A stretch of 64,000 bases of DNA from Blastocatellia bacterium (GTDB lineage: Bacteria > Acidobacteriota > Blastocatellia > HR10 > J050): the NCBI GenBank assembly GCA_026985075.1, contig JALSQX010000053.1, positions 156,773 through 220,772 of the forward strand, written 5' to 3'. The notes under the pieces are model-generated. The model did no database searches. It was not told where the DNA came from and saw only the letters and a program-made list of their open reading frames with translations. Position numbers and translations under genes: made by a program. This document shows, one piece after another, positions 7,322 to 9,109 of the stretch. Numbering within the stretch: the stretch's first letter is position 1; every line of letters starts with the position of its first letter.

Positions 7322-8113
7322 ATGCACCATCGATGGTTCAGTATCATCGGTACGACGCTCACGATGGCCATCATCTGGAGTGGCGCGATGGGGCGGGCTC
7401 AAGCCCCCGCCATCCCGACCAGAGTCATGGTTCGGGTCGTTTCGCAGGATGCCAAGATTCTCTCCGATCACGTCGGTGGCGCCCGAGTGATCATCCGAGA
7501 CGCGCGCACGGGCGAGATTCTGGCTCAAGGCATCCAGAAGGGTGGCTCCGGGGATACGAAACGCATCATGATCGAACCGAGGAAACGGGGAGCATCTATC
7601 TATGACACTCCGGGAGCAGCTGGGTTCTCGACCACTCTCATGCTGACGCGGCCCACCGTGGTGGAGGTCATAGCTGAGGGACCGCTCAATTATCCGCAGG
7701 CCACCCAACGGGCCTCCAAGACGCTGTTGCTCGTCCCCGGTAAGGATGTGCTCGGCGATGGCATCGTGCTCACGCTTCACGGATTCATTGTGACGCTGGA
7801 AACCCCAGCCAGCGAGGCGAATGCGAACGTCGGCCAACCACTCCCTATCCGCGCTACGGTGAGGATGATGTGAGGATGTCCGACGCAGCCCGGTGGGCTG
7901 TGGGACGCGCGAAGATACGAGATCGTCGCCCGGCTGGTGCGCGATGGGAAGGTCGTCAAAGAAGCGCCTCTTCGCTACGCCGGTCAGGTGAGCACGTATG
8001 AAGGGCAACTCATACCGGATCAAGCGGGAACATTCGACCTGGAAGTGCTGGCCATGGACGCTCGCCGAGCCAACTTCGGCATGACCAAGATCCCTCTCAC
8101 CGTCAAACCATGA
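7322..8113 (+). CDS. Candidate selenoprotein: secreted protein with in-frame TGA (7871-7873) read as Sec; unrecognised family
   Basis: ORF up to ..PIRATVRMM then TGA then an open in-frame 79-codon continuation GCPTQPGGLWDARRYEIVARLVRDGKVVKEAPLRYAGQVSTYEGQLIPDQAGTFDLEVLAMDARRANFGMTKIPLTVKP*; hairpin CAGCCC-GGT-GGGCTG at 7886-7900. Confidence 0.7.
7878..7906 (+). promoter_or_regulatory. Putative bacterial SECIS element (first candidate)
   Basis: GTCC(7878-7881)..CAGCCC(7886-7891)-GGT-GGGCTG(7895-7900)..GGAC(7903-7906); 18 nt between TGA and the GG of the loop. Confidence 0.6.
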
Positions 8114-8319
8114 TGAGGGCGGCGAACGCGGCGATGCTCTGCTGGTGACGGAGCAGCGATGCTCGGCGAGGTCAATGCTCAGGCCGAAGCATCGCATTCG
8201 CCATCCCGAAAATGGACGCGCTGAGGACCATGGCTCCTCTCATTCCGCCCGGTGCCACTATCGGCTCGCGGTCTGGCGGGGCGGCCATTGAGCGGTGGGA
8301 GAATCGCGCCAGCGGCAGT

Positions 8320-8430
8320 AAGTTGACCATCCCCTCGGAGTCCAGGCGTGTTCCCGACGACAACGACAACGAGCGCCCCGACAATTGTACAAATTGACCA
8401 TCCCCTCGGAGTCCAGGCGCGTTCCCGACG
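8320..8430. repeat. Two 40-bp direct repeats separated by 31 bp
   Basis: aaRttgaccatcccctcggagtccaggcgYgttcccgacg at 8320-8359 and 8391-8430, 2 mismatches. Confidence 0.9.
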
Positions 8431-8527
8431 CGTACTCCCCATTGTTCGGGCTCCCGACATCCGGTCGGCGCACCAGTGGTCCGGGCGTCGCTTGACAGAT
8501 GCCCACGGTCAGGGCCATGATTGCTCT

Positions 8528-9109
8528 ATGGCCTGGATCAAGACGATTCCGCCAGAGGACGCTGAAGGATTGCTGAAACAGCAATATGACGCAGCCATCA
8601 AACGAGCCGGACGCATCTTCAATATCGTTCGTGTTCAGAGCCTGAACCCGCGCGTCCTGGAGGCCTCGATTGGCCTGTATAAAGCGATCATGTTCGGACC
8701 ATCGAGTCTGACGCGCGCCCAGCGAGAGATGATCGCCGTCGTCGTCTCCAAAACGAACGACTGTTTTTACTGAACGGAAGCTCACGGGGAGGATCTCCGT
8801 CAGGTCACCGGCGACGACCGTTTAGTGGAACAGATCAAGACGGATTATCGACGGGCCAATCTCGATGAGCGTACGCGGGCCATGCTCGATTATGCCGTCA
8901 TGATCACCCGAGATGTTCATCGTATCGATCAATCGACCATCGATCAACTGCGCGCTCGCGGATTGAGCGACGAAGATATCCTGAATGTGGCTCACGTAAC
9001 GGGGTTCTTCAATTACTACACGCGTCTGGCCGATGCGCTGGGCGTGGATCCGGAAGATTTCATGCTTCGGCGCCGATCGCCGGGAATGCACCAATCCAGC
9101 GAAACCTGA
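8528..9109 (+). CDS. Candidate selenoprotein: AhpD-like / carboxymuconolactone decarboxylase peroxidase-related enzyme with CxxU (TGA at 8771-8773)
   Basis: MAWIKTIPPEDAEGLLKQQYDAA..MIAVVVSKTNDCFY[TGA]TEAHGEDLRQVTGDDRLVEQIKTDYRRANLDERTRAMLDYAVMITRD..; TGA sits at the second Cys of the family CxxC; both halves in one frame. Confidence 0.85.
8784..8800 (+). promoter_or_regulatory. Putative bacterial SECIS element (AhpD-like gene)
   Basis: ACGGGGA-GGA-TCTCCGT, 7-bp stem with one G-U pair; loop starts GG 17 nt after the TGA. Confidence 0.6.

What the first reader, a model, noticed from the sequence alone, without database searches (positions are those of the whole stretch)
7322..9109. Tandem selenoprotein locus with matched SECIS geometry
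Two consecutive same-strand genes each carry one in-frame TGA at a Cys-like position. The hairpin loops start with GG at 18 and 17 nt after the UGA respectively, similar to E. coli fdhF by my recollection of its sequence. Two independent nonsense errors with this geometry side by side would be unlikely. Co-localisation suggests a functional pairing, for example a secreted UxC protein with a cytosolic CxxU peroxidase. Standard annotation would miscall both genes as truncated proteins or pseudogenes.
Basis: inference. Interest (0 to 1): 0.82.

Follow-up and report, generated by a model that had tools for sequence, protein, structure and literature searches.

The report
New selenoprotein beside known AhpD-like selenoprotein
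Two neighbouring genes of an Acidobacteriota genome each use a UGA "stop" codon to insert selenocysteine; one belongs to a known enzyme family, while the other is an uncatalogued selenoprotein from a large unnamed protein family, and the two are neighbours only in this narrow lineage.

Summary
Both observations hold. Gene 1 (7322-8113, in-frame UGA 7871-7873) and gene 2 (8528-9109, UGA 8771-8773) each have a GG-loop hairpin starting exactly 18 and 17 nt after the UGA. The genome has selA, selB, tRNA-Sec(UCA) and a Sec-containing selD. A relative (isolate J050) keeps both genes and both UGAs, and codons after each UGA still change mostly at the third position. Gene 2 is a known kind: AhpD-like CxxU (TIGR01926), frequent in the phylum. 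Gene 1 is the new part: an exported, two-domain Ig-like protein with a U/C-G-C motif and no Pfam or NCBIfam model, absent from a 2026 catalogue of 119 prokaryotic selenoprotein families. Eleven UGC copies in ten Acidobacteriota genomes align with 77 CGC homologues. The hairpin is in 11/11 Sec but 6/77 Cys forms, and one stem pair is C-G in one lineage and G-C or G-U in the rest. The proposed functional pairing is not supported: the genes adjoin only in the window genome and J050, each occurs without the other elsewhere, and gene 2 has its own promoter-like site. Gene 1 is probably a selenenylsulfide-forming redox protein; its substrate is unknown.

The parts
7322..8113 (+). Gene 1: exported two-domain Ig-like selenoprotein (263 aa with Sec at residue 184), motif MMUGCPTQPGGLWDA; TGA stop at 8111-8113
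   Evidence: start at 7322 preceded by AGGAGG
7322..7411 (+). Probable Sec-type signal peptide of gene 1 (MHHRWFSIIGTTLTMAIIWSGAMGRAQA...)
   Evidence: sequence read directly; N-terminal helix 7-22 in the model; similar leaders in most Cys homologues
7871..7873 (+). In-frame UGA read as selenocysteine (U184), aligned with an invariant Cys of the Cys-form homologues
7878..7906 (+). bSECIS-like hairpin of gene 1; apical loop GGU 7892-7894, 18 nt after the UGA; core stem 7885-7891 / 7895-7901
8320..8430 (+). Intergenic 40-nt direct repeat, two copies (8320-8359, 8391-8430), 95% alike, inside a stretch absent from relative J050
8492..8521 (+). Promoter-like TTGACA-18-CATGAT directly upstream of gene 2 (possibly leaderless); also present in J050
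8528..9109 (+). Gene 2: AhpD-like (CMD domain, TIGR01926) selenoprotein, 193 aa with Sec at residue 82, motif DCFYUTEAHGEDL (CxxU)
8771..8773 (+). In-frame UGA read as selenocysteine (U82), second position of the CxxC/CxxU motif
8775..8810 (+). bSECIS-like hairpin of gene 2; apical loop GGA 8791-8793, 17 nt after the UGA; core stem 8784-8790 / 8794-8800
5490..7265 (+). Upstream gene, gamma-glutamyltransferase-like (named by reading the sequence, not scanned), ends 56 nt before gene 1; order also kept in J050

Best explanation
Both UGAs are selenocysteine codons, decoded by the organism's own SelA/SelB/SelC/SelD machinery using a hairpin just downstream of each UGA. Gene 2 is an ordinary Sec-containing AhpD/CMD-type (CxxU) peroxidase-related protein. 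Gene 1 is a previously uncatalogued selenoprotein: an exported protein of two Ig-like beta-sandwich domains whose invariant C-G-C motif has become U-G-C. [quoted passage not shown] The two genes are neighbours by lineage history, not as a conserved two-component system. Shown here computationally: UGA/Cys exchange, hairpin, machinery, constraint after the UGA, absence of conserved pairing. Inferred: export, redox chemistry. Unknown: substrate and reductant.
For: Gene 1: 11 UGC copies in 10 Acidobacteriota genomes align with an invariant Cys in CGC homologues from Rhodothermota, Gemmatimonadota, Pseudomonadota, Myxococcota and others. The predicted hairpin loop starts exactly 18 nt after the codon in 11/11 Sec forms and 6/77 Cys forms. 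One stem pair (Gln/Glu codon base 1 with Leu codon base 3) is C-G in window and J050 and G-C or G-U in the other Sec forms, standard in 11/11 Sec and 30/77 Cys forms. Against J050, codons after each UGA differ mostly at position 3: gene 1 8/9/18 and gene 2 6/6/32 at positions 1/2/3. selA, selB, tRNA-Sec with UCA anticodon, and selD with its own Sec (HGAGUACK) are in the genome. Gene 2 matches TIGR01926 (E 4e-45), and relatives carry the UGA across the phylum. Model of gene 1: pLDDT 93.6; C-terminal domain alone 96.8, with UGC just after its second main strand.
Against: No protein, mass or selenium data. Two of the eight other Sec-form genomes searched for selA lacked a full hit (G104 none, G266 fragments; both incomplete assemblies). 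Downstream constraint on gene 1 is weaker than upstream (14 nonsynonymous and 13 synonymous codons after the UGA, against 17 and 48 before it). Sec rows are few and related, so hairpin counts are not independent events; the tree gives three changes but a single Sec clade is not rejected (p-AU 0.154). Structural hits are generic Ig/FN3 folds and neither CsgC nor nDsbD is among the top 50, so the redox role rests on the motif and the analogy.
Confidence: 0.88

Rival explanations
1. The two selenoproteins form a functional pair (secreted UxC partner reduced or regenerated with the CxxU peroxidase), kept together by selection.
For: Adjacent, same strand, in window and J050 although the intergenic length differs, and neither is lost in J050.
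Against: No other gene-1 locus has a gene-2 relative nearby. In G008, G104, G164, G172 and G266 both families are present but on different contigs; G132 (same family) has gene 2 alone. Gene 2 has its own promoter-like site. Gene 1 seems exported and gene 2 does not.
Confidence: 0.07
2. The UGAs are ordinary stops or assembly errors: gene 1 ends at residue 183, gene 2 is a pseudogene or two pieces.
For: Automated annotation treats gene 1 this way (183-aa P0003 and P0022).
Against: Same UGAs in an independent assembly, constraint after them, Sec/Cys column exchange, matched hairpins, full Sec machinery.
Confidence: 0.02
3. Gene 1's UGC/CGC site binds a metal (for example Cu, Zn or As) rather than carrying out thiol redox chemistry; it would be a periplasmic metal or metalloid-handling protein.
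For: Some Cys-form homologues sit beside RND efflux genes and ArsR/SmtB regulators; other Sec proteins handle metals.
Against: No conserved metal-ligand set beyond the two positions; the efflux association is confined to sphingomonad islands and a few other loci; most loci have no such neighbour.
Confidence: 0.2
4. The UGA codes for Sec, but gene 1 is an electron-transfer or sensor partner of exported c-type haem proteins (PF11845, Tll0287-like).
For: In eight loci (Rhodothermota/Bacteroidota, one other Pseudomonadota, sphingomonad plasmids) a CxxCH PF11845 protein lies next to the gene-1 homologue; in the six genome loci it is always within 320 nt and never further out.
Against: No PF11845 protein beside the Sec forms, including the window.
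Confidence: 0.15

Closest known systems
AhpD-like selenoproteins (TIGR01926 / PF02627, CxxU; listed in PMC13188914 Table 1)
   Same: Gene 2: same family model, CxxU motif, UGA, bSECIS-like hairpin; widespread in the phylum
   Different: Nothing of substance; a further member
UGC-containing TlpA-like and DUF1573 selenoproteins (PMC13188914 Table 1)
   Same: Gene 1 shares the bare UGC tripeptide
   Different: No match to PF07610 or any thioredoxin-fold model; predicted fold is tandem Ig-like sandwiches and the flanking motif is different
[quoted passage not shown]
   Same: Ig-like fold carrying a redox-active Cys pair (CxC in CsgC, at the BC loop to strand C); in gene 1 the UGC also follows the second main strand of the C-terminal domain (from the DSSP order of a model)
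   Different: No sequence similarity (no Pfam or PDB sequence hit), not among the top 50 fold matches, no curli or DsbD context
Thioredoxin-like selenoprotein Sec.2 (UxC, PF13192; PMC13188914 Table 1)
   Same: UxC spacing
   Different: Different fold and no family match

Membership tests
Bacterial selenoprotein (gene 1) | In-frame UGA aligned with Cys in homologues | tested here: met
   invariant U/C column in 11 Sec and 70+ Cys forms
Bacterial selenoprotein (gene 1) | bSECIS hairpin directly after UGA, loop with G at first positions, about 16-37 nt away | tested here: met
   GGN loop at 18 nt in all Sec forms
Bacterial selenoprotein (gene 1) | Sec machinery in the same genome | tested here: met
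   selA, selB, tRNA-Sec, selD:
Bacterial selenoprotein (gene 1) | Selenium in the product | not testable with these tools
   needs 75Se labelling or mass spectrometry
AhpD-like CxxU selenoprotein (gene 2) | Match to TIGR01926 above its cut-off | tested here: met
   153.6 bits against cut-off 81.8
AhpD-like CxxU selenoprotein (gene 2) | CxxU motif with bSECIS after the UGA | tested here: met
   DCFYU, loop GGA at 17 nt, kept in many relatives:
NF041238 AhpD_rel_CFYUT | Score above the family cut-off (175 bits) | tested here: not met
   70.3 bits; related but not this family
DUF1573 (PF07610), TlpA-like or any other catalogued selenoprotein family (gene 1) | Match to the family's Pfam/NCBIfam model | tested here: not met
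   no such hit for gene 1; only weak unrelated hits among 64 members:
CsgC / nDsbD | Sequence or close fold similarity | tested here: not met
   no Pfam or PDB sequence hit, not in the top 50 fold matches; kept only as an analogy
Conserved two-selenoprotein operon | Recurrent adjacency in unrelated genomes | tested here: not met
   only window and J050:

The most novel reading that the evidence does not exclude
Gene 1 is the first known member of a class of redox-active Ig-fold selenoproteins: an exported (in one clade apparently cytosolic) two-domain protein whose UGC selenenylsulfide does thiol/oxidant chemistry, within a widespread unnamed bacterial family (CGC form) that partners c-type haem proteins in some lineages.
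Probability: 0.35. Interest if true: 0.68.

Novelty: new member of a known kind. Interest (0 to 1): 0.52.

Why it matters
It adds an uncatalogued selenoprotein family to about 119 known ones, and the Sec form marks the probable catalytic residue of a family of at least 1,431 protein clusters (90% identity) that, as far as listed, carry no Pfam domain and, where named at all, are called 'hypothetical protein'. Sec at an invariant Cys is a strong hint of redox catalysis, so the family becomes testable. It also shows that Acidobacteriota, where AhpD-like selenoproteins are common, hold selenoproteins that standard annotation truncates.

Tried and rejected
Conserved gene neighbourhood of gene 1: none overall; only PF11845 recurs. 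A DsbB partner on plasmid NZ_CP013917 was dropped as evidence because that protein has no Pfam match and no such gene recurs. The 17-sequence alignment was too diverse for the genome scan, so a 7-sequence one was used. A single origin of the Sec form could be neither shown nor rejected. Rfam, ARAGORN on the window and PHROGs gave nothing. The first alignment of relatives had minus-strand loci in the wrong orientation and was redone. A first motif scan of gene-2 relatives was too strict and was redone. The 40-nt intergenic repeat is local, not a dispersed element.

Full report
The observation. In the window, frame 7322-8113 (+) has one internal TGA at 7871-7873 and frame 8528-9109 (+) one at 8771-8773. 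The best local hairpins have loops GGU and GGA that begin 18 and 17 nt after the respective UGA. As a background, all 4,854 in-frame codons of 16 frames in the first 20 kb were tested for a contiguous stem of at least 6 bp with a GG-initial loop at 16-19 nt: 12 pass, both UGAs among them, and none of 46 Cys codons. Gene 1's start is probably ATG 7322, preceded by AGGAGG; the database copy also starts there.

The organism reads UGA as selenocysteine. The genome (5.2 Mb, 105 contigs, 98.7% complete) has selA (577 bits), selB (371 bits), a tRNA-Sec with UCA anticodon, and selD, which itself has an in-frame TGA in ...HGAGUACK....

Gene 2 is a known kind. It has the CMD domain (PF02627), matches TIGR01926 at 153.6 bits (cut-off 81.8) and is related to, but below the cut-off of, NF041238 'AhpD_rel_CFYUT'. 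TIGR01926 CxxU proteins are in the 2026 catalogue of prokaryotic selenoproteins (PMC13188914). Relatives occur in 118 of 396 genomes of the phylum, and most of the closest carry the TGA. Many close ones keep the same hairpin with a G-initial loop at 17 nt. The own genome has a second copy with UGA on contig C73.

Gene 1 is the new part. Its homologues form a family of at least 1,431 clusters at 90% identity; those listed carry no Pfam domain and, where named, are called 'hypothetical protein'. No Pfam or NCBIfam model is met by gene 1, only scattered weak hits among 64 diverse members, and no PDB sequence matches. In the phylum 21 of 396 genomes have a homologue, nine of them with a single in-frame TGA. 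Among 80 loci from the species-level genome collection nearly all have C-G-C at the site, while those of Acidobacteriota include U-G-C. The site is invariant in a 64-row alignment: K45, G77, P139, G154, U/C184, G185, C186, W194. A Nitrospira homologue has lost both Cys.

The hairpin belongs to the Sec form. Taking the same 42 nt after the codon, the minimum-energy fold has its loop starting at 18 nt in 11/11 Sec forms and 6/77 Cys forms. The pair formed by base 1 of the Gln/Glu codon and base 3 of the Leu codon is standard in 11/11 Sec forms (C-G in window and J050; G-C or G-U in the rest) but only 30/77 Cys forms, where GAG with CTG is commonest. A tree gives three changes of state, with window and J050 close to Rhodothermota Cys forms, but one Sec clade is not rejected (p-AU 0.154), so these counts are not independent events.

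Constraint beyond the UGA. Isolate J050 (L045, RFHM01000472) aligns at about 85% DNA identity and keeps both UGAs and the order of the genes. Substitutions fall mostly on third positions: gene 1 upstream 17/5/58, downstream 8/9/18; gene 2 upstream 5/0/29, downstream 6/6/32. Gene 1's tail is less constrained than its front, but its frame is open and its key residues are kept.

The pairing idea. Gene-2 relatives adjoin gene 1 only in window and J050. In G008, G104, G164, G172 and G266 both families occur on different contigs; G132, in the same family as the window, has gene 2 with UGA and no gene 1. A TTGACA-18-CATGAT site lies immediately before gene 2 (10 of 12 matches; mean 0.6 sites in shuffles, so weak alone) but is also present in J050. 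The intergenic stretch is 414 nt here and about 150 nt in J050. A functional pair is therefore not supported; J050 and the window genome are simply close relatives.

What gene 1 does. The AlphaFold2 model is confident (pLDDT 93.6; C-terminal domain 96.8) and shows an N-terminal helix (the presumed signal peptide) and two beta sandwiches. Fold matches are generic Ig/FN3/E-set domains, with superoxide reductase and SoxZ in the list; none identifies a function. UGC follows the second main strand of the second domain. Redox-active Ig folds are rare: the CsgC paper calls nDsbD the only other known example, puts CsgC's CxC between the BC loop and strand C, and gives -139 mV for CsgC and -167 mV for the CGC tripeptide (PMC3173608). 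By analogy, and because Sec usually sits at redox-active positions (established knowledge of selenoproteins), I take gene 1 to be an extracytoplasmic selenol/thiol oxidoreductase (about 50%). Some Cys forms adjoin an exported c-type haem protein (PF11845): eight loci in three settings, and in the six genome loci always within 320 nt. Sphingomonad copies sit in an island with RND efflux, ArsR, rhodanese, TlpA, cytochrome bd and, in one, catalase and a Dps-type protein, which fits oxidant or thiol stress. None of this is seen at the Sec forms.

Annotation.

Novelty. Table 1 of PMC13188914 lists 119 families/subfamilies; its UGC entries are DUF1573 and TlpA-like proteins, neither of which gene 1 matches; families named there by NCBIfam models are also unmatched. 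A literature search on the motif found nothing, and the deep-Sep paper's new families are different. So gene 1 is, as far as I can tell, a new selenoprotein family, i.e. a new member of a known kind. Papers outside the open library could not be checked.

Noticed in passing
G000:C73:110336-110872 (L002): A second AhpD-like gene in the same genome with an in-frame UGA (RCHYUVTHHGEGL) and a GGG loop 17 nt after it.
   Followed up: partly
G000:C33:250191-251117 (L164): selD of this genome is itself a selenoprotein gene (HGAGUACK).
   Followed up: yes
L027, L028, L030, L032: One clade of UGC-form gene-1 homologues seems to lack a signal peptide (clearest in L028) and has two further conserved Cys (VSCDAK, GGCRIT).
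   Followed up: partly
L048, L050, L051, L057, L067, L079, L172, L173: PF11845 (Tll0287-like) exported c-type haem proteins lie directly beside Cys-form gene-1 homologues in several phyla.
   Followed up: partly
window 8320-8430: 40-nt direct repeat, two copies 71 nt apart, in an intergenic stretch missing from J050; not found elsewhere in the genome.
   Followed up: yes
L105 (Nitrospira sp. SJ32) 8001-8705: Gene-1 homologue that has lost both motif cysteines (SGALVRPHGDWD).
   Followed up: no
window 5490-7265: Gamma-glutamyltransferase-like gene ends 56 nt before gene 1 on the same strand, also in J050; possible co-transcription.
   Followed up: no
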